From Anaerolineales bacterium (GTDB lineage: Bacteria > Chloroflexota > Anaerolineae > Anaerolineales > UBA11579): 64,000 nucleotides of DNA. The notes under the pieces were generated by a model. The model saw only the letters and a list, made by a program, of their open reading frames with translations. It made no database searches and was not told the origin of the DNA. The stretch covers positions 1-64,000 of the forward strand of contig JAHCIH010000005.1 of assembly GCA_026129335.1 (NCBI GenBank), in the 5' to 3' direction. Positions 52,395-61,496 of this stretch are shown piece by piece. The position numbers and the translations under genes were made by a program. Position 1 is the first letter of the stretch, and every line of letters starts with the position of its first letter.

Positions 52395-53132
52395 TTAGCG
52401 CAGGGTCTGGCGCAGGGCGCTCAACTGGCCGGAGACGGAACCGTCCAGCACTTTGTCGCCCACGCGCACCACCAGGCCGCCCAGAATGTTCGGGTCCACC
52501 TTGAAGTCCACAGTGCCCTTGCCACCCAGGGTGGAAAGCACCTGCTTCTGCACGGCTTCCTGCTCAGTCTTGCTCAGCGGCAGGGCGCTGGTGACCACGG
52601 CCGCCTGGCCGCTGACCTCGGCGCCTTCGAGCACGGTGACCTTGCCGGCTTTGACGCCGGAGAAGAACTCGTCGATGAGGGCCTTCTGGCGCTTCTCGTC
52701 CATCGCGTCGCCGATCAGCTTCTGGGCTGCGGCGATGGCCAACGCACCCACCTGGCCGCGCACATCGCTGAGGATGCGGGCGCGCTCGGTGTCCACTTCG
52801 GCGAGGGCTTCCTCGCGGGCCTTGCCAGCAGTGGCCTCGGCAGCGGCGCGGATTTCCTTGGCCTGCTGCTCGGCGCGCTGGGTGACTTCGCGGGCTTCCT
52901 GAGCCGCTTTGGTGCGGGCCTCGTTGAGCAGCTTCTCAGCTTCCTTCTCAGCGTTCTCGCGAGCTTCCGCGGCGATGCGGGCATCTTCGAGGCCCTTGCT
53001 GATGCGTTCGCGGCGCTCTTCGAGCACGCGGCCGATGGGCTTGAACACCCAGGCGCGCAGCACCACGAAGAGGATCAGAAAGTTGAAAATCTGGACGAGC
53101 AGAAAACCCAGATTAATACCTAAGGCTTCCAA
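52395..53132 (-). CDS. atpF: ATP synthase b subunit fused to the C-terminal domain of delta
   Basis: The 245-residue protein has a b-subunit N-terminus: a membrane helix at residues 8-28, ending AWVFKPIGRVLEERRERI, and a long charged coiled coil to about residue 160. Residues 165-245 match the C-terminal domain of delta/OSCP, with VDPNILGGLVVRVGDKVLDGS. The helical N-terminal domain of delta that binds the alpha subunits is missing. Mycobacteria have a longer b-delta fusion that keeps it. The gene stands where atpF and atpH are expected and is followed by a terminator. Confidence 0.88.
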   Translation of the reverse strand: MEALGINLGFLLVQIFNFLILFVVLRAWVFKPIGRVLEERRERISKGLEDARIAAEARENAEKEAEKLLNEARTKAAQEAREVTQRAEQQAKEIRAAAEATAGKAREEALAEVDTERARILSDVRGQVGALAIAAAQKLIGDAMDEKRQKALIDEFFSGVKAGKVTVLEGAEVSGQAAVVTSALPLSKTEQEAVQKQVLSTLGGKGTVDFKVDPNILGGLVVRVGDKVLDGSVSGQLSALRQTLR

Positions 53133-53167: not shown

Positions 53168-53395
53168 TTAGAAAACGAACAGAATGAGCATGGCCACCAC
53201 CAGACAGTAAATGGCGATGGCTTCGGTGAACACGATACCCAGGATCATGTTGGTCTGGATGGCGCCAGCGGCATCCGGGTTGCGGGCGATGCCCTGCACG
53301 CCGCCGAAAGCGGCCATGCCTACGCCGAGGCCGGCGCCCATCGCGCCGATCATGGCAATCCCAGCACCAATCAGTTTTGCAGCTTCAGCTTCCAT
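53168..53395 (-). CDS. atpE: ATP synthase c subunit
   Basis: The 75-residue hairpin forms the proton-driven c-ring of F0. The polar loop is ARNP at residues 37-40 and the ion-binding carboxylate is Glu58 in VFTEAIAIY. The Gln and Ser/Thr ligands typical for sodium-binding c subunits are absent, so it is of the proton type. It lies between atpB and the b-delta gene. Confidence 0.96.
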   Translation of the reverse strand: MEAEAAKLIGAGIAMIGAMGAGLGVGMAAFGGVQGIARNPDAAGAIQTNMILGIVFTEAIAIYCLVVAMLILFVF

Positions 53396-53429: not shown

Positions 53430-54461
53430 TTAGTGGTGTTCTTCGTCGCCGTGATGCGACTGGGTTGCCTGGGCCATGAAGATCATGGTGAGCATGCCGA
53501 ACACCAGGGCCTGGATCAGGCCGACAGCAAACTCCAGCATCAACACACCGGTCTGGGCTGCAACCGGAATGAGCGTACCGATAACGAACAGCAGAACCAT
53601 GCCGGCAAAGATGTTGCCGAACAAACGGAAAGAGAACGAGATGATCTTGGAGAACTCCGAGATGATCTCGAAAAGGCCGACCACAAAGTCGATGATGCCC
53701 ATGCCCGGCTTGGCGAAGAGGGCACGGAAATTGAAGAATTTCTCGAAGTAGCCCAGGCCCTGGGCGCGGATGCCGATGGCCTGAATGGAGACGAACGAGA
53801 TGATCGCCAGGGCGATGGTGAAGTTCAGGTCAGTGGCGGCGGCGCGCACGAAGGGCACCACCGCGGCGGCGCAGGCGGTGGGGCCGCCCACGGCGACCAC
53901 CGGCATGCTGCCGATGGTGAACAGCGTATCCAGGCTGCAGTCACGCTCGGCGTCCACGGCCGGGTCCACATCATGGACGTGGTGCAGGCTGTGGTCGTTG
54001 ATGATGCCGATGCTATCCACGCCGGGGATCAGTTCCATCCAGTTGGCCACCAGCACCAGCAGGGTGATGGCACCGAACAAGGGGAAGATCGCCTTGGTCC
54101 ACTTGCCGGCGGTGTTCTCGGTCAGGTTGTGGATCACCTCGACCAGCGCCTCGATCACGCCAACTACGCCCTTGAAGACCAGTTGGCCGGAGCGCAGCGC
54201 CGGGCGGATGAAGAGAAACGCCAGCAGAAGCAGGAACACGTCGGCGATCAGCGTGGCCACCAGGGTGTTGGTGATGAAGAAATCGGTGCCCAGGCCGGGG
54301 AACTGGAACAGCGTTTCGGTGAGGGCTTCAGCGGGGAGCTGGATGTAAGGACGCACCGGGGGAATCCGCCCGGAGACGATCACGCTGACGATAATAATCG
54401 CCAGAATGATCCAGCGATTGACACCGTATTTCCATTTGCGGGTAGCTTCTTCTTTAGCCAC
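53430..54461 (-). CDS. atpB: ATP synthase a subunit
   Basis: Subunit a forms the proton half-channels. The 343-residue protein has the essential arginine in FSFRLFGNIFAGM and the usual C-terminal helices. It is longer than the E. coli a subunit, mainly due to an external loop of about 60 residues with HSLHHVHDVDPAVDAERD. GTG 54461 is chosen because GAGGAGG lies about 9 nt upstream; it overlaps the atpI/Z stop by 8 nt. ATG 54470 is an alternative. Confidence 0.93.
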   Translation of the reverse strand: MAKEEATRKWKYGVNRWIILAIIIVSVIVSGRIPPVRPYIQLPAEALTETLFQFPGLGTDFFITNTLVATLIADVFLLLLAFLFIRPALRSGQLVFKGVVGVIEALVEVIHNLTENTAGKWTKAIFPLFGAITLLVLVANWMELIPGVDSIGIINDHSLHHVHDVDPAVDAERDCSLDTLFTIGSMPVVAVGGPTACAAAVVPFVRAAATDLNFTIALAIISFVSIQAIGIRAQGLGYFEKFFNFRALFAKPGMGIIDFVVGLFEIISEFSKIISFSFRLFGNIFAGMVLLFVIGTLIPVAAQTGVLMLEFAVGLIQALVFGMLTMIFMAQATQSHHGDEEHH

Positions 54462-54759
54462 TGGCCGCATCCTCCTCATCCTTCGATGAATTCGCCGGCA
54501 GCAAGCGCGCGGTTGTGAAACGCACAACCCAGAGCATTGCCACCAATGTAAACGGCACACTCACACATAGCAGAGCGATGGTGTAAATGTGGTTTTCGCT
54601 TGTAAAGTAGTCGTCCAGCCACAACCCGGCGAACAGGGCCAGCATGAGGATGGCGATGGTAAGGAAACCTGCTAACGTGGCTACTCCGACCAGCTTGAGC
54701 GAAAAGGTCATCGCCTCCTGGCGAGGGTCCTTAGACCCGGAGTTCTGGGAGCGGGCCAT
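54454..54759 (-). CDS. atpI: AtpI/AtpZ-like small membrane protein
   Basis: The 101-residue protein has two membrane helices separated by a short loop (AGLWLDDYFTSENH), as in AtpZ/AtpI proteins encoded first in atp operons and involved in c-ring assembly or ion uptake. The stop overlaps the atpB start. The promoter ends 9 nt before its ATG, so the operon mRNA begins nearly at this start codon. Confidence 0.82.
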   Translation of the reverse strand: MARSQNSGSKDPRQEAMTFSLKLVGVATLAGFLTIAILMLALFAGLWLDDYFTSENHIYTIALLCVSVPFTLVAMLWVVRFTTARLLPANSSKDEEDAASG

Positions 54760-54811: not shown

Positions 54812-56260
54812 CTAGAAAAGCCCGGCGGCGCCAGAGGCGGCCCAGTTGTACCAGGGGGCCAGCACCACGCCCAGAATCAGCATCAGCAGCACGGAGACCA
54901 GCAGCGTGGCCGCCTGCGGACGGGTAGCCGGCACCGGCTTGTCGCTCTTAGGCTCATCCAGGTAGGCCACCTTGAGCACAACCAGGTAATAGTACAGGCC
55001 CACGATCGAGTTGAGCACGGCGACCACCACGAGCCAGACCAGCCCGGCTTCCACCGCGGCGGCGAAGGCGAGTATCTTGGCGATGAAGCCACCCAGCGGC
55101 GGGATGCCCGCCAGCGAAAGGAACGAGAGCAGCAGCGCCAGGGCCAGCATCGGCGAGCGGCGGTGCAGGCCGGCATAATCGGCGATCTCATCCGAACCGG
55201 TGGTGTGCCAGACAACGATGACCACGCCAAAAGCGGCGATCTGCGTCACGGTGTAGACCAGCAGGTAGTAGACCAGGCTGACCACGCCCAACTCCGAAGC
55301 GGCGGCCACCGCCAGCAGCGAATAGCCGGCATGCGCCACGGAGGAGTAAGCCAGCAGGCGTTTGATGTTGCGCTGCGACAGGGCGATCAGGTTGCCGACT
55401 GTCATGGTCAGCGCGGCGCCGGCGGCGATGATCGTCTGCCATTCGACCAGGATGGCGGGGAAGGCGGCCAGCATCACGCGCAGCAGCACGACGAAGCCGG
55501 CGGCCTTGGAGGCCGTGGAGAGGAAAGCGGTGATCGGCGTGGGCGCGCCCTCGTACACATCAGGCGCCCAGAAGTGCAGCGGGGCCATGGAGACCTTGAA
55601 GCCAAAGCCGACCAGCACCAGCAGCAGCGTACCGATGAGCACCGGAGCTGGGATGGCCGCCGAGGCGATGCCCGCGGCGATGGCATACAGGCTGGTGCTG
55701 CCGGCGAAGCCGTAGAGCAGGCTGAAGCCGTAAAGCATCACGCCGGTGGTCACCGCGCCGAAGAGCAGATACTTGAAGCCGGCTTCGGTGGATTTGTCGT
55801 CTCGCACCACGAAACCCGCCAGCACGTACAGCGGAATGGAGGTGGTCTCGATGGCCAGGAAGAGCATCAACAGGTCCGCCGAGGCGCCCATCAGGGTCAT
55901 GCCCATGGTGGAGACCAGCAGCAGCACATAGTACTCGCCCTTGAGCCAAACCTTCTGCCAGCCCACGGTCAGCAGAGTAACCAGCAAGGCGGCGGTGAGG
56001 AAGATGATCTTGAAGATGAAAGCCAGCCAGTCGTGGCGCAGCATGCCGCCCCACACCAACTGGGGCTGCGCGCCCGGCTGGGCGAAGAGGCCGGTGAGCA
56101 GCAGAGTCAGGCCCAGGCCGCCCACGGCCAGCCAGGCCGGCAGCGAGCTGCGCTTGCCGTGCAGGATCAGGTCGGCGGTGAAGACCACCGCCATGACCAC
56201 CAGCAGCGAAATCTCTGGGAGGATGGCCAGCAGCATCTCAGGGGTAATCGAAGCAAACAT
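54812..56260 (-). CDS. nuoN: NADH-quinone oxidoreductase subunit N
   Basis: NuoN is one of the three antiporter-like proton pumps of complex I. The 482-residue protein has about fourteen helices, the charged ATETTSIPLYVLAGF-like segment (FLAIETTSIPLYVLAGF), FKVSMAPLHFWAPDVYEGAPTPI and RLLAYSSVAHAGY. It is the last gene of the nuo cluster and lies 1 nt from the second nuoM gene. It is followed by the atp promoter. Confidence 0.95.
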   Translation of the reverse strand: MFASITPEMLLAILPEISLLVVMAVVFTADLILHGKRSSLPAWLAVGGLGLTLLLTGLFAQPGAQPQLVWGGMLRHDWLAFIFKIIFLTAALLVTLLTVGWQKVWLKGEYYVLLLVSTMGMTLMGASADLLMLFLAIETTSIPLYVLAGFVVRDDKSTEAGFKYLLFGAVTTGVMLYGFSLLYGFAGSTSLYAIAAGIASAAIPAPVLIGTLLLVLVGFGFKVSMAPLHFWAPDVYEGAPTPITAFLSTASKAAGFVVLLRVMLAAFPAILVEWQTIIAAGAALTMTVGNLIALSQRNIKRLLAYSSVAHAGYSLLAVAAASELGVVSLVYYLLVYTVTQIAAFGVVIVVWHTTGSDEIADYAGLHRRSPMLALALLLSFLSLAGIPPLGGFIAKILAFAAAVEAGLVWLVVVAVLNSIVGLYYYLVVLKVAYLDEPKSDKPVPATRPQAATLLVSVLLMLILGVVLAPWYNWAASGAAGLF

Positions 56261-57742
56261 CTATGCGCCTCCCAGCAGGGCCAGCACGGCGTCCACGCCG
56301 TGCTGCACCATGGGCATAATCACGTTGGGGTAAACACCGATGGCGATCATAATGAAACACAGGATGGCGATGGCCAGCTTCTCCGAAGGCTTCACGTCGT
56401 GCATATGGCCCTCGAGCTCGGCAGGCAACTCGCCGAAGAATACGCGGCCCACCGCCCGCAGGATATAGGCCGCGGTGACCGCAATGGACACTACGCTGAT
56501 GATGGCGATCCAAGGGTAGTCCGCCGCCCATAGGCCCATGAAGATGGGGAACTCGGCGATGAAGCCGGAGAAGCCCGGCATGCCCATGGAGACCAGACCG
56601 CCAATGATAAAGCCCACGCCGGCGAACGGCATGATCTTCATCAGCCCGCCCAGCTCAGGGATCTGGCGGGTGTGCGCCTGGTCGTAGATCATGCCGACTA
56701 CGGCGAAGAAGAGCGCCGTCATCACGCCGTGCGAAACCATCTGCACACTGGCGCCTACCAAGCCGTTGTAGTCCAGGGTGGCGAAGCCCATGGCCACCAG
56801 GCCCATGTGTGACACCGAGGAGTAGCCGATCATGTACTTGAAGTCGGTCTGGGTCATGGCGATGAACGCACCGTAGACCACGTTGACCAGGGTGAGCAGG
56901 ATGATCCAGGGCATATGCGTCTGCGCGCCGATGGGCATCAGCATGATGCCCACGCGCAGGGCGGCGAAAGCGCCCAGCTTCATCAGCACGCCGGCGTGGA
57001 ACATGGACACCGCCGTGGGGGCGGCCACATGGCCCACCGGGCTCCAATTGTGGAACGGGAAGATGCCGCCCAGCACCGCGAAGCCGAAGAAGACGAAGGG
57101 GAACCACAAGTTCTGGAAGGCCGGCGAGAAGTTGGCGCTCTCCAGGGCGATCATGTCAAAAGTGCCCAGGCCGGAGCTGAAGTACATGGCCAGGGCGCCG
57201 ACCAGGGCGATCACCGAGCCGACGAACAGATACAAGGTCAGCTTCATCGCGGCGTATTCGCGGGTCTGCTTCCAGCCCCACAGGGCGATAAGCAGGTACA
57301 TGGGGAACACGGCGATTTCGTAGAAAAAGAACAAGGCGAACAGGTCCAGCGCCACGAAGACGCCGAACACGCCGCTGGCCAGGATGAACAGGAAGGCGAA
57401 GAACTCGCGCACGCGGTCTTCGATGCGCTGCGAGATGATCACACCGGTGAAGATGACCACACCGGTGAGCAGCACCAGCGGAGCGCTGATGCCATCCACG
57501 CCGACGTGGAAAGAGATGCCCAGGGCGGGCAGCCAGTCATACTTCTCCACGAACTGGAAGCGCGGCCCGGCGGTGTCGAAGCCCAGGTAGACCACCAGCG
57601 TGAGCAGGAAGGTGACGAAGGCGGCGCCCAGCGCGAAGCGATAGATCAAATCGCGGTTCTTGGGCGGGAGGAAGAGCATCACCGCGCCGGCCACGATGGG
57701 CAGCAGAACGATGGCGCTGAGGATGTAGGGGATTTGCATCAA
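56261..57742 (-). CDS. nuoM: NADH-quinone oxidoreductase subunit M, divergent second copy
   Basis: The 493-residue protein has the antiporter-like fold of NuoM, with FFFYEIAVFPMYLLIALWGW carrying the helix-5 glutamate. The lysine helix region reads NWSPVGHVAAPTAVSMFHAG followed by VLMKLGA, clearly different from the typical WLPDAHTEAPTAGS of the other copy at 57759-59315. It is therefore an old paralogue, not a recent duplication. AAGGTGA precedes ATG 57742. Two NuoM subunits in one cluster fit the 2M type of complex I. Confidence 0.9.
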   Translation of the reverse strand: MMQIPYILSAIVLLPIVAGAVMLFLPPKNRDLIYRFALGAAFVTFLLTLVVYLGFDTAGPRFQFVEKYDWLPALGISFHVGVDGISAPLVLLTGVVIFTGVIISQRIEDRVREFFAFLFILASGVFGVFVALDLFALFFFYEIAVFPMYLLIALWGWKQTREYAAMKLTLYLFVGSVIALVGALAMYFSSGLGTFDMIALESANFSPAFQNLWFPFVFFGFAVLGGIFPFHNWSPVGHVAAPTAVSMFHAGVLMKLGAFAALRVGIMLMPIGAQTHMPWIILLTLVNVVYGAFIAMTQTDFKYMIGYSSVSHMGLVAMGFATLDYNGLVGASVQMVSHGVMTALFFAVVGMIYDQAHTRQIPELGGLMKIMPFAGVGFIIGGLVSMGMPGFSGFIAEFPIFMGLWAADYPWIAIISVVSIAVTAAYILRAVGRVFFGELPAELEGHMHDVKPSEKLAIAILCFIMIAIGVYPNVIMPMVQHGVDAVLALLGGA

Positions 57743-57758
57743 TTCACCTTATGTCCAA

Positions 57759-59315
57759 CTAGCCGAAAATTTTCAACACGGCCTGATTAATCACATCCAA
57801 CAGCCAGGCGGGCCAAATGCCCAGCCAGAGCATCAGCACCACCAGCGGGGAAAGCACCAGCAGCTCGCGGCGGGTCACATCAGCAAAGTGGCCTTTCCAT
57901 TTCTCGTTCAGCGGGCCGTGCAGGGTCTTGGAGATCCCTTTGAGGATGTAGGCGCCGGTGAAGAGCAGGCCGAGCATGCTCAGCGCGGTGTATTGGGTGA
58001 AGATGGGCCAGGCGCCGCGCACCACCAGGAATTCGGAGACAAAGCCGTTCAGGCCCGGCAGGCCCAAAGAAGCCATCGAGCTGAGGATGAGCAGCGCGCC
58101 GAACAGCGGCACGATGGCGAACAAGCCACCCCAGGCATTGAGGTCACGGGTGTGGGTGCGCTCGTAGATGATGCCGACCATGAAGAACATCGCCGCCGCC
58201 GAAATGCCATGGTTGAACATTTGCAGCACGGCGCCGTTCACCGCGATGACCGCGCTCTCGGTGCCGGCGGCGAAGGCCGCCGCGGCGATGCCCAGCACCA
58301 CGAAGCCCATGTGGTTCACCGAGGAATAAGCCACCAGGCGTTTGAAGTCGTTTTGGGCGAAGGCGGAGAAGGCGCCGAAGATGATCGCCGCGGTAGCCAG
58401 CAGCGCGAGCACCGGCGCGTACTGCTGCGCCTGCTCGGGATACAGCGGCAGCACCAGGCGCAGAAAGCCATAGGCGCCCAGCTTGAGCAGCACGCCGGCC
58501 AGGATCATCGAGCCGGCGGTGGGCGCCTCGGTGTGCGCATCCGGCAGCCAGGTGTGGAAGGGCCAGATAGGCACTTTGACGGCAAAGGCGATGGCGAAGG
58601 CCCAGAAGGCGACCGCCTTGATCGTGCCCATCTCATAACCAAAGAGCGTGCCGCTCAGCGCCGGCCAGCTCTCGTAGAGCGCCAGCAGGTCGAAGCTGCC
58701 GGCGACCACGCCGAGCAGCTGCACGGCCAACAGCAGGCCCAGCGAGCCGACCATGGTGTAGACCATGAACTTGAAGGCGGCGTAGCGCCGCGAGGGGATC
58801 TTGATGCCGTTCCACAGCTCGCGCTCGCCGCCCTTGCTGCCCCACTGGTCGATGAGGAAATACATCGGCACCAGGCCGATCTCCCAAAAGAGGAAGAAGA
58901 GCAGCAGGTCGAGGGAGAGAAAGACGCCGAGCATGCCGGTTTCCAGCGCCAGGAACAGGGCCATGTAGGGCTTCACCCGCTCCTCGACGCTGAACGAAGC
59001 CAGCAAGGCCAGAGGGGTGAGCAGCGTGGTCAGCAGCACCATGCTCAGCGAGAGGCCGTCCACGCCCAAGTGGTAGCTGGAGTTGATCGCCGGGTACCAG
59101 ACGTGCTGCTCCTGCATGCGGAAGCCGTCCACCTCCGGCGCGGCGCCGAAGCCGAACCAGGCAACCAGCGTGAGGGCGAAGGGCAGCAGGCTGAGCGCAA
59201 ATGCAACCCGGCGAACCAGGTCTTTGTTCTCCCCGGGCAGCAGCATAACAACCAGCGCCGCCAGCATGGGGCTGAACAAAATCAGGGAGAGGATGTTGTT
59301 GTGAATAAAGTCCAT
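57759..59315 (-). CDS. nuoM: NADH-quinone oxidoreductase subunit M
   Basis: The 518-residue protein is a standard NuoM proton pump, with FFLFWEIGLVPMYFLIDQWG carrying the helix-5 glutamate and WPFHTWLPDAHTEAPTAGS carrying the half-channel residues, then KLGAYGFLRL. It starts 6 nt after the nuoL stop and ends 17 nt before the second nuoM. Confidence 0.95.
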   Translation of the reverse strand: MDFIHNNILSLILFSPMLAALVVMLLPGENKDLVRRVAFALSLLPFALTLVAWFGFGAAPEVDGFRMQEQHVWYPAINSSYHLGVDGLSLSMVLLTTLLTPLALLASFSVEERVKPYMALFLALETGMLGVFLSLDLLLFFLFWEIGLVPMYFLIDQWGSKGGERELWNGIKIPSRRYAAFKFMVYTMVGSLGLLLAVQLLGVVAGSFDLLALYESWPALSGTLFGYEMGTIKAVAFWAFAIAFAVKVPIWPFHTWLPDAHTEAPTAGSMILAGVLLKLGAYGFLRLVLPLYPEQAQQYAPVLALLATAAIIFGAFSAFAQNDFKRLVAYSSVNHMGFVVLGIAAAAFAAGTESAVIAVNGAVLQMFNHGISAAAMFFMVGIIYERTHTRDLNAWGGLFAIVPLFGALLILSSMASLGLPGLNGFVSEFLVVRGAWPIFTQYTALSMLGLLFTGAYILKGISKTLHGPLNEKWKGHFADVTRRELLVLSPLVVLMLWLGIWPAWLLDVINQAVLKIFG

Positions 59316-59321
59316 GGTCGC

Positions 59322-61496
59322 CTATTGCAAGATGTTGAGCAGGTAGTAGAAGAAGCCGCCGAAGACCACCAGGGCGACCAGCAGCAGGTACTGCTGCACC
59401 TGGCCAGTCTGGATGTGGCGCAGGACGCGGCCCACGGTCTGGGTGATATCGGCGGTCTTGTCGGCCACCCCGTCGATCACGGGGATTTCGAACTTGTCGC
59501 GGAACAAGCCGCCCAGGGCCATGGCGCCGCGTGCGGCGCGGTGCAGCAGGCCGTCGATCACCTGGCCGTCCAGGAAGCGGTAGCTGAAGGCTTCGGAGAA
59601 GGCCTGCGAAGGCTTCACGAAAAGGCGCTCGTACAGTTCGTCGAAGTAGTATTTGTTCTCGAGCAAGTTGTAGATCGGGCCGAGCGCCTTGCGCAGCGGG
59701 TCGGTCTGGCCGGCGTTGCGGTAGACCAGGTAACCCAGGCCCAGGCCGCCCAGGGCAACCAGCACCGAGACCAGCAGCGGGACAATGTTGAAGTCCACCG
59801 CCGAAGGGTGCTCCAGCAGCGTGCTGCCCACGAAGTGGTGGAACCAGTTGGGCAGCAGGCCGCCGATGGCGGGGAAGTGCTCGGGGATGCCCACCCAGCC
59901 GGCAGCGATGGCGAACACGGAGAGGATCACCAGCGGCACAGTCATGGTGCGCACGTTTTCGCTAGCGTGCTCGGCGGCCTTGGTGCGCGGCTTGCCGAGG
60001 AAGGTCAGCGTGATCTGGCGGGCGGTGTAGAAAGCGGTGAGCAGCGCGGCCAGCGCCAACACGATGAAGACGCTCATGTGGCCGTGGGCGAAGGCGTCGG
60101 CGAGGATCTCGTCCTTGGACCAGAAGCCGGAAGTGAGCAGCGGGAAACCGGAAAGCGCCAGGCCGCCGATGAGGAAGGTCCAGAAAGTGACCGGCATTTT
60201 GTCCTTCAGGCCGCCCATGTTGAACATGTCCTGCGGGTCGGTGTCGTGGTCGCCGGTGTGCAGCACGCCGTGCTCCACGCCGTGGATCACCGAACCGGAG
60301 CCGAGGAAGAGCAGCGCCTTGAAGAAGGCGTGGGTCACCAGGTGGAAGGCGGCGGCCACGTAAGCGCCAATGCCCAAGGCAGCGATCATGTAGCCCAGCT
60401 GCGAAATGGTCGAGTAGGCCAGCACGCGCTTGATGTCGCGCTGGGCCACGGCGATGGTGGCGGCGAACAGCGCGGTGAAGGCGCCGATGAAGGCCATGAT
60501 GGTCATGGCCGCGGTCAGTTCGCCGTGGTGCCAGCCCGCCGAGAGCAGCGGGAACATGCGCAGCACCATGTACACGCCGGCCGAGACCATCGTGGCGGCG
60601 TGGATCATGGCGGAGACCGGCGTGGGGCCTTCCATCGCATCCGGCAGCCAGACGTGCAGCGGCCACTGGGCCGATTTGCCCACCGTGCCGATGAAGAGCA
60701 GGATGCCGATCAGCCCGGCCAGCGAGAGGCCGGCGATCAGGCTGGGCGTGTTGGCCAGCGTCTCCAGCACCGCGGCGTTGTAGAGGATCTCACGGAAGTT
60801 GAGCGTGCCAGTGGCCGAATACAGGGCCACGATGCCCAGCAGCATGAACACATCGCCGATGCGGGTGGTCATGAAAGCCTTCTTGGCCGCATCGCGGGCG
60901 GAGGGCTTGGCGTACCAGAAGCCGATCAGCAGGTAGGAACACAGGCCCATGATCTCCCAGCCGACGAAGAGGGTCAGCAGGTTGTCCGACACCACCAGGG
61001 TGTACATGCCGAAAGCAAACAAGGCGATGAAGGCGAAGAAGCGGGCGTACATCGGCTCGATGGAAGGCACCGTATGCCCGTGGTCCTTCGCCCCGTGCGG
61101 CGGCAGGCCGGGGTGGTCGTGGTCTCCCTTGGGTTGGCCGAAGTTGTGGTAGCCGATGCTATAGATGAAGATCATCAGCACCGTCCAGGCCACGAAGAAC
61201 AGCGTGACCGCGGACAGCGGGTCGATCAGCACGCCGATGGAGAAGAAGCCCTCGCCCAACGGCAGCCAGTTGACCGTCGAGGCGATGACGTGTTCGCCAA
61301 AGTGATCCACGCCCAGGGCGGTGAGGAAAACCAGGTTGCCCAGCAGCCAGGAGATGGCCACGGCGACCACACCCACTGTGTGGCTCAGCGCGTTGTTGCG
61401 GCGGGTGAAGAGCAGGATCAGGAAGAACGCCAGCAAAGGCGGGAGTGGGACAAGCCAGACGAGGCTCGCAGTGGGCATGCCGAAGGTTTCAATCAT
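59322..61496 (-). CDS. nuoL: NADH-quinone oxidoreductase subunit L
   Basis: NuoL is the distal proton pump with a long lateral helix. The 724-residue protein has VGWEIMGLCSYLLIGFW and WPLHVWLPDAMEGPTPVSA, then the C-terminal ENKYYFDELYERLFVKP segment preceding the lateral helix and last membrane helix. It is about 110 residues longer than E. coli NuoL. Part of the excess is a histidine-rich loop at about residues 118-141. It lies 9 nt after nuoK. Confidence 0.95.
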   Translation of the reverse strand: MIETFGMPTASLVWLVPLPPLLAFFLILLFTRRNNALSHTVGVVAVAISWLLGNLVFLTALGVDHFGEHVIASTVNWLPLGEGFFSIGVLIDPLSAVTLFFVAWTVLMIFIYSIGYHNFGQPKGDHDHPGLPPHGAKDHGHTVPSIEPMYARFFAFIALFAFGMYTLVVSDNLLTLFVGWEIMGLCSYLLIGFWYAKPSARDAAKKAFMTTRIGDVFMLLGIVALYSATGTLNFREILYNAAVLETLANTPSLIAGLSLAGLIGILLFIGTVGKSAQWPLHVWLPDAMEGPTPVSAMIHAATMVSAGVYMVLRMFPLLSAGWHHGELTAAMTIMAFIGAFTALFAATIAVAQRDIKRVLAYSTISQLGYMIAALGIGAYVAAAFHLVTHAFFKALLFLGSGSVIHGVEHGVLHTGDHDTDPQDMFNMGGLKDKMPVTFWTFLIGGLALSGFPLLTSGFWSKDEILADAFAHGHMSVFIVLALAALLTAFYTARQITLTFLGKPRTKAAEHASENVRTMTVPLVILSVFAIAAGWVGIPEHFPAIGGLLPNWFHHFVGSTLLEHPSAVDFNIVPLLVSVLVALGGLGLGYLVYRNAGQTDPLRKALGPIYNLLENKYYFDELYERLFVKPSQAFSEAFSYRFLDGQVIDGLLHRAARGAMALGGLFRDKFEIPVIDGVADKTADITQTVGRVLRHIQTGQVQQYLLLVALVVFGGFFYYLLNILQ

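What the first reader, a model, noticed from the sequence alone, without database searches (positions are those of the whole stretch)
52395..53132. b-delta fusion of ATP synthase lacking the delta N-terminal domain
Residues 1-160 are subunit b and 165-245 the C-terminal domain of delta. The helical domain of delta that caps F1 is missing and no separate atpH is adjacent. The peripheral stalk top would need another way to contact the alpha subunits.
Basis: partly seen in the sequence, partly recalled or inferred. Interest (0 to 1): 0.6.

Follow-up and report, generated by a model that had tools for sequence, protein, structure and literature searches.

The report
ATP synthase stator without delta cap
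A whole lineage of Chloroflexota bacteria makes its main ATP synthase without the protein domain that normally caps the enzyme's head, having fused the rest of that subunit to the stator stalk, which may let the enzyme carry more than one stalk and make ATP on a weaker proton gradient.

Summary
Confirmed. Window 52395-53132(-) encodes subunit b (residues 1-162) joined by a short linker to the C-terminal domain (CTD) of delta (176-245); the delta N-terminal domain (NTD) is absent. The MAG has one alpha/beta pair, one b gene and no other delta. Across the order, 57 of 61 genomes have a delta match, essentially all CTD-type. A delta-NTD profile rings in 6/6 control genomes and 0/13 genomes of the fused lineage, including single-contig ones. 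Within the class, 68 of 150 genomes keep a full delta and 75 have only CTD-type matches. An alpha+beta tree puts the fused clade inside ordinary Chloroflexota F-type enzymes, not with N-ATPases, which share the b+delta-CTD design. Most likely the b-deltaCTD dimer holds F1 through the normal deltaCTD-alpha contact and leaves the F1 axis open. Published engineering shows the delta NTD is what limits F-ATP synthases to one stalk. The PDB Chloroflexus aurantiacus enzyme (short delta; nearest solved relative of the window's a and b) holds a2 b4 delta2 c10 alpha3 beta3 by chain count, i.e. two stalks. A multi-stalk enzyme here is plausible but unproven. New variant of a known kind.

The parts
52395..53132 (-). 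atpF-delta fusion: 245-aa stator protein, subunit b joined to the delta CTD
   Evidence: ORF; PF00430 + C-terminal PF00213; conserved in relatives
52647..53132 (-). b part, residues 1-162: N-terminal membrane helix and coiled-coil helix
   Evidence: PF00430 at 11-140; predicted helices 8-144 and 146-162
52608..52646 (-). linker, residues 163-175, where a delta NTD of ~105 residues would stand in an ordinary delta
   Evidence: pLDDT under 50 at 162-173; OSCP profile positions 1-102 not matched
52398..52607 (-). delta C-terminal domain, residues 176-245
   Evidence: PF00213 profile 103-172; superposes on solved delta CTDs, Z about 10.5
53168..53395 (-). atpE, subunit c (75 aa)
   Evidence: PF00137 6e-16. 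Proton type by the absence of the Na+-binding Gln and Ser/Thr ligands: read by eye
53430..54560 (-). atpB, subunit a (376 aa as listed, start uncertain), with a ~60-residue insert before the DLNFT motif
   Evidence: PF00119; best PDB match by far is C. aurantiacus subunit a, 155 vs 61 bits for the next
54454..54759 (-). atpI-like small membrane protein
   Evidence: PF09527 1e-3, below the cut-off; position in the operon

Best explanation
This gene encodes the peripheral stalk of the organism's only detected F-type ATP synthase. SHOWN: the protein is subunit b joined directly to the delta CTD; no delta NTD is detectable in the genome or in complete relatives; only one b gene is found; the alpha N-terminal helix that delta normally grips is retained. 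INFERRED: two copies pair through the b coiled coil, giving a b2 stalk with two delta CTDs, and at least one CTD binds an alpha N-terminal helix as in ordinary enzymes. The NTD, which normally sits on the F1 axis and binds the other two alpha subunits, is gone, so the axis is open and a second (or third) stalk with its own a subunit is sterically possible, as in C. aurantiacus. The lineage lost the NTD from an ancestor with a full delta; shortened free deltas in Chloroflexia-like families and some Anaerolineae look like parallel or intermediate stages.
For: CTD-only delta in the own genome, the order and half of the class. A delta-NTD profile is positive in 6/6 full-delta controls and negative in 13/13 genomes of the fused lineage, four of them single-contig. 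One b gene and one alpha/beta pair. AlphaFold model and superposition on solved delta CTDs. Alpha N-terminal helix kept. delta CTD binds one alpha and the NTD limits stalks to one in Bacillus PS3 (PMC12229609). C. aurantiacus enzyme with reduced delta NTD has alpha3 beta3 delta2 b4 a2 c10 by chain counts (named), and the window's a and b are closest to it in the PDB. Fused clade nested among full-delta relatives.
Against: No complex has been predicted or measured; stoichiometry is inferred. The fusion forces two CTDs per b2 stalk, unlike the b2-delta1 stalk of C. aurantiacus, so the analogy is not exact. Single-chain AlphaFold confidence is moderate (pLDDT 75, pTM 0.35). The own genome is 72% complete. 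Basal branches within the class have only moderate support (88-94).
Confidence: 0.75

Rival explanations
1. One stalk only: the two delta CTDs of a single b-deltaCTD homodimer bind two different alpha N-terminal helices, the second CTD doing the work of the lost NTD, like FliH2 on FliI or the E subunit of A/V-ATPases. This is a sub-case of the main reading that excludes multiple stalks.
For: One b gene implies a homodimer with two CTDs. The model superposes on V-ATPase subunit E and on FliH of the FliH-FliI complex, Z 8.5-8.8.
Against: The nearest solved relative has two stalks by chain count. Z under about 13 for long helices may only show a common arrangement (note). Nothing shows that both CTDs bind.
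Confidence: 0.4
2. Another protein, an NTD too diverged to detect or an unrelated cap, replaces the delta NTD on top of F1.
For: The alpha N-terminal helix is conserved in all three alphas, so a partner for each would be expected; profile searches miss extreme divergence.
Against: No candidate beside the F0 genes or the F1 genes; the NTD profile finds nothing in 13 genomes while working in all controls; NTD-less delta is functional in the engineered PS3 enzyme when fused to alpha.
Confidence: 0.08
3. The enzyme is an N-type ATPase (secondary ion pump) rather than the main ATP synthase.
For: N-ATPases lack delta and have a longer b (PMC5706428); TIGR03321 aligns along nearly the whole window protein; N-ATPase b subunits have the same b+deltaCTD domains.
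Against: TIGR03321 score 92.6, far under its cut-off 224.7. Gene order differs (F0 genes after nuo, F1 genes elsewhere). It is the only alpha/beta pair. The alpha+beta tree excludes it from N-ATPases, p-AU 0.03, though an alpha-only tree did not (p-AU 0.43).
Confidence: 0.03
4. Assembly or gene-calling artefact of a metagenome-assembled genome.
For: The genome is a 72%-complete MAG and its gamma gene has an apparent one-base frameshift.
Against: The same fusion of nearly the same length occurs in independent assemblies, including chromosome CP075367.1 and other single-contig genomes.
Confidence: 0.01

Closest known systems
Chloroflexus aurantiacus ATP synthase (PDB 9itj, 9itk and related entries)
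   Same: Same phylum; closest solved relative of the window's a and b; delta with reduced NTD; delta CTD 36% identical, Z 10.5.
   Different: delta is a separate 157-aa protein with an NTD remnant; two stalks are observed by chain count there, only inferred here.
N-ATPase (alternate F1F0) subunit b, TIGR03321
   Same: b plus delta-CTD domains in one chain and no separate delta.
   Different: N-ATPases are a separate clade, in one 'D C ... B E F A G' operon and reported always in addition to a main enzyme (PMC5706428); the window's is the only F-type enzyme detected and lies in the Chloroflexota F-type clade.
Mycobacterial b-delta (PRK13428; PDB 7njk, 7jg5)
   Same: b and delta in one chain; best structural match, Z 13.9.
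   Different: The mycobacterial protein keeps the delta NTD (about 445 aa) and pairs with a second, separate b subunit.
deltaDeltaN-alpha enzymes (engineered Bacillus PS3; Acidaminococcus fermentans by sequence; PMC12229609)
   Same: delta NTD removed, CTD kept and fused to a stator-side partner.
   Different: There the CTD is joined to the alpha N-terminus; here to the b C-terminus.
FliH and A/V-ATPase subunit E
   Same: Long helix followed by a small alpha/beta domain; Z 8.5-8.8.
   Different: No b-type membrane anchor and only remote similarity; the tree indicates that the window's design is derived, not a relic.

Membership tests
F-type ATP synthase subunit b | ATP-synt_B domain over the family cut-off | tested here: met
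   PF00430 90.5 bits (cut-off 28), TIGR01144 98 bits (cut-off 65.5)
F-type ATP synthase subunit b | in an atpI-B-E-F gene cluster | tested here: met
   window order and seven relatives
F-type delta / OSCP | C-terminal domain | tested here: met
   PF00213 103-172, 68 bits; fold Z about 10.5
F-type delta / OSCP | N-terminal helical domain | tested here: not met
   no match in the protein, genome or relatives (with positive controls)
N-ATPase | b+deltaCTD, no separate delta | tested here: met
N-ATPase | TIGR03321 cut-off | tested here: not met
   92.6 vs 224.7 bits. Weak test: two Chloroflexota N-like b proteins also miss the cut-off
N-ATPase | single operon beta-epsilon-Q-R-a-c-b-alpha-gamma | tested here: not met
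   F0 genes by nuo, F1 genes on another contig; N-type order seen in L220, L221
N-ATPase | present in addition to a main ATPase | tested here: not met
   only one alpha/beta pair in the own MAG and in near-complete relatives
N-ATPase | branches with N-ATPases | tested here: not met
   alpha+beta tree, p-AU 0.03 against; alpha alone undecided
Mycobacterial b-delta | full delta fused to b, plus a second b gene | tested here: not met
   no NTD; one b gene; PRK13428 85 bits vs cut-off 328
Two-stalk F-ATP synthase (C. aurantiacus-like) | reduced or absent delta NTD | tested here: met
Two-stalk F-ATP synthase (C. aurantiacus-like) | a and b subunits closest to the C. aurantiacus ones among solved structures | tested here: met
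Two-stalk F-ATP synthase (C. aurantiacus-like) | two stalks and two a subunits per F1 | not testable with these tools
   needs the complex; no multimer prediction or biochemistry available
deltaDeltaN-alpha fusion enzymes | delta CTD joined to the alpha N-terminus | tested here: not met
   alpha starts at its ordinary N-terminal helix

The most novel reading that the evidence does not exclude
A large part of class Anaerolineae naturally runs ATP synthases with two or three peripheral stalks and as many a subunits on one c-ring, each stalk a b-deltaCTD homodimer. This would raise H+/ATP well above the usual values (20/3 for the C. aurantiacus counts, if proton use is additive per a subunit as in PMC12229609) and let slow, anaerobic cells make ATP at low proton motive force.
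Probability: 0.45. Interest if true: 0.8.

Novelty: new variant of a known kind. Interest (0 to 1): 0.64.

Why it matters
The delta NTD is generally taken as the cap that holds the stator on F1. Here it has been removed from the main, and as far as found only, ATP synthase across an order and much of a class. Because the NTD has been shown experimentally to be what restricts F-ATP synthases to one stalk, these organisms make the question 'do natural multi-stalk, high H+/ATP enzymes exist beyond Chloroflexus?' directly testable. The series full delta, shortened free delta, bare CTD, b-fused CTD within one phylum is a natural experiment in stator evolution. It also shows that the b+deltaCTD design of N-ATPases can arise by loss, which weakens its use as evidence for a primitive state.

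Tried and rejected
A full-length delta elsewhere: none. A small NTD gene beside the F1 genes: none. N-ATPase membership: rejected on gene order, sole-enzyme status and the alpha+beta tree; the alpha-only tree was inconclusive (p-AU 0.43). Assembly artefact: rejected by independent assemblies. The ~50-aa alpha insertion as a compensating contact: not adopted; it occurs in most fused genomes but not in G053 or G295, and by fold reasoning (no coordinates read) it sits on the side of the nucleotide domain, not on top. The a-subunit insert as a marker of multi-stalk enzymes: not adopted, since full-delta Anaerolineae (L109, L112) have it too. Papers on the C. aurantiacus structure: not found in the held library. 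Dibrova et al. 2010 on N-ATPases is not held, so N-ATPase facts rest on PMC5706428. One paper search failed on a short term.

Full report
OBSERVATION. The ORF at 52395-53132 on the minus strand is 245 aa long. Pfam finds ATP-synt_B at residues 11-140 and OSCP (delta) at 176-244; the latter covers only profile positions 103-172 of 172, the C-terminal domain. AlphaFold2 with eight sequences gives helices 8-144 and 146-162, a low-confidence linker, then beta-alpha-beta-beta-beta-alpha (mean pLDDT 75, pTM 0.35). The last 70 residues superpose on delta CTDs of Pseudomonas, E. coli, bovine and Chloroflexus enzymes (Z 10-11, rmsd about 2) and, with the helix end, on mycobacterial b-delta (Z 13.9), where the alignment skips the roughly 200 residues that hold the delta NTD.

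IS DELTA ELSEWHERE? In the own MAG (72% complete, 2.02 Mb) the only OSCP match at E<=10 is this gene. The F1 genes alpha-gamma-beta-epsilon lie on contig C2 between ruvA/DnaJ-like and mreB-like genes (identified by eye), with no atpH. The genome has one alpha/beta pair plus one more distant ATPase of Rho/FliI size, not identified, and one b gene. The same holds in near-complete and single-contig relatives, except that G068 and some others carry an additional N-type enzyme. A profile of the delta NTD alone, built from 27 Chloroflexota deltas, finds the NTD in 6 of 6 full-delta control genomes (E<=2e-12) and in 0 of 13 genomes of the fused lineage (best E 0.07, in unrelated frames), including single-contig G012, G015, G041 and G267. 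Genomes with free shortened deltas gave no full NTD either; two of the Chloroflexia-like ones show a weak remnant of the second half of the NTD inside their delta gene.

HOW WIDE. In the order, 57 of 61 genomes have an OSCP match over the cut-off; nearly all begin after profile position 90 in frames of about 240-270 aa, and the few earlier starts lie in frames of fused length. In the phylum sample most genomes have a full delta at E 1e-30 to 1e-53. In the class, 150 genomes split sharply: 68 with a full delta (E<=2e-26), 75 with weaker, CTD-type matches (E>=1e-20), 7 with none (counted by hand from the listing). The ORFs read show that most CTD-type ones are b-deltaCTD fusions, while a minority are short free deltas: 83 aa (L127), 118 aa (L125, L122), 120 aa (L114), 158-173 aa (L119, L116, L113). 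[quoted passage not shown]

DIRECTION OF CHANGE. A tree of concatenated alpha and beta (45 rows, 965 columns) puts all fused genomes in one clade (SH-aLRT 94) inside the class, beside full-delta G243 and G150; N-ATPases lie far outside (99). Forcing fused genomes and N-ATPases together costs 43 log units, p-AU 0.03. An alpha-only tree could not decide this (p-AU 0.43). So the fusion is most simply a loss of the NTD from a full delta, independent of N-ATPases, although N-ATPase b subunits have the same b+deltaCTD domains and are described as lacking delta with a longer, E-like b (PMC5706428).

MECHANISM. In Bacillus PS3 the delta CTD binds one alpha N-terminus and the NTD, lying on the three-fold axis, binds the other two; removing the NTD and fusing the CTD to alpha gave up to three stalks, each with its own a subunit, and H+/ATP 5.8 (PMC12229609). 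That paper predicted natural multi-stalk enzymes from a deltaCTD-alpha fusion in Acidaminococcus. The PDB already holds what looks like a natural case: for the C. aurantiacus ATP synthase (9itj, 9itk; named) identical-chain counts are alpha 18 in 6 entries, beta 18 in 6, delta 12 in 6, b 72 in 18, a 36 in 18, c 180 in 18, i.e. two stalks and two a subunits on one c10 ring; its delta has a reduced NTD. I read these stoichiometries from chain counts, not from a paper. The window's a and b are closest in the PDB to this enzyme by a clear margin. In the window's lineage the NTD is gone altogether, the alpha N-terminal helix is kept, and the CTD is on b. A homodimeric stalk then carries two CTDs. 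Whether they serve two alphas from one stalk (FliH/E-like; Z 8.5-8.8) or one alpha each in several stalks cannot be told from sequence. I hold the core (NTD-free stator held by the CTD) at 0.75 and the multi-stalk reading at 0.45.

CONTEXT. The F0 genes follow nuoL-nuoM-nuoM-nuoN in the window and in the seven relatives whose contig covers that side, L007-L013. The doubled nuoM matches the '2M' complex I reported for Anaerolinea, whose extra NuoM is said to translocate an extra proton (PMC7117926). A high-pumping complex I next to a stator that may allow a high-H+/ATP synthase would fit energy-limited anaerobes; this is inference.

VERDICT. Observation confirmed; interpretation partly supported and extended. 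New variant of a known kind; interest 0.64, rising to 0.8 if the multi-stalk reading is true.

Noticed in passing
window 54812-61496 (-): nuoL-nuoM-nuoM-nuoN directly upstream of the F0 genes: two NuoM-type subunits, both over the NuoM cut-off, i.e. the '2M' complex I gene order known from Anaerolinea (PMC7117926); the nuo-atp-murE neighbourhood is conserved in seven relatives.
   Followed up: partly
L017 6170-7831 (alpha, residues ~310-360): Insertion of about 50 residues in alpha between the LHSRLLERA helix and the SLTALP strand; present in most fused genomes, absent in full-delta and short-delta Chloroflexota and in fused G053 and G295. Function unknown; may face the peripheral stalk.
   Followed up: partly
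window 53430-54560 (-): Subunit a has a ~60-residue insert between its LIPG and DLNFT motifs, variable in sequence and often acidic/His-rich in relatives; shared with C. aurantiacus and with full-delta Anaerolineae.
   Followed up: partly
L127, L125, L122, L114 (delta genes near position 1500): Free-standing delta proteins of 83-120 aa with little or no NTD, encoded between b and alpha, in several families of the phylum: other candidates for multi-stalk enzymes.
   Followed up: partly
L017 7858-7920: The gamma subunit gene of the window's genome has an apparent one-base frameshift near codon 19; relatives G037 and G051 are intact. Probably an assembly error.
   Followed up: partly
L202 (G068:C1:2146500-2156500): Some members of the order carry an N-type ATPase besides the fused main enzyme, so two independent b+deltaCTD stators coexist in one genome.
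   Followed up: partly
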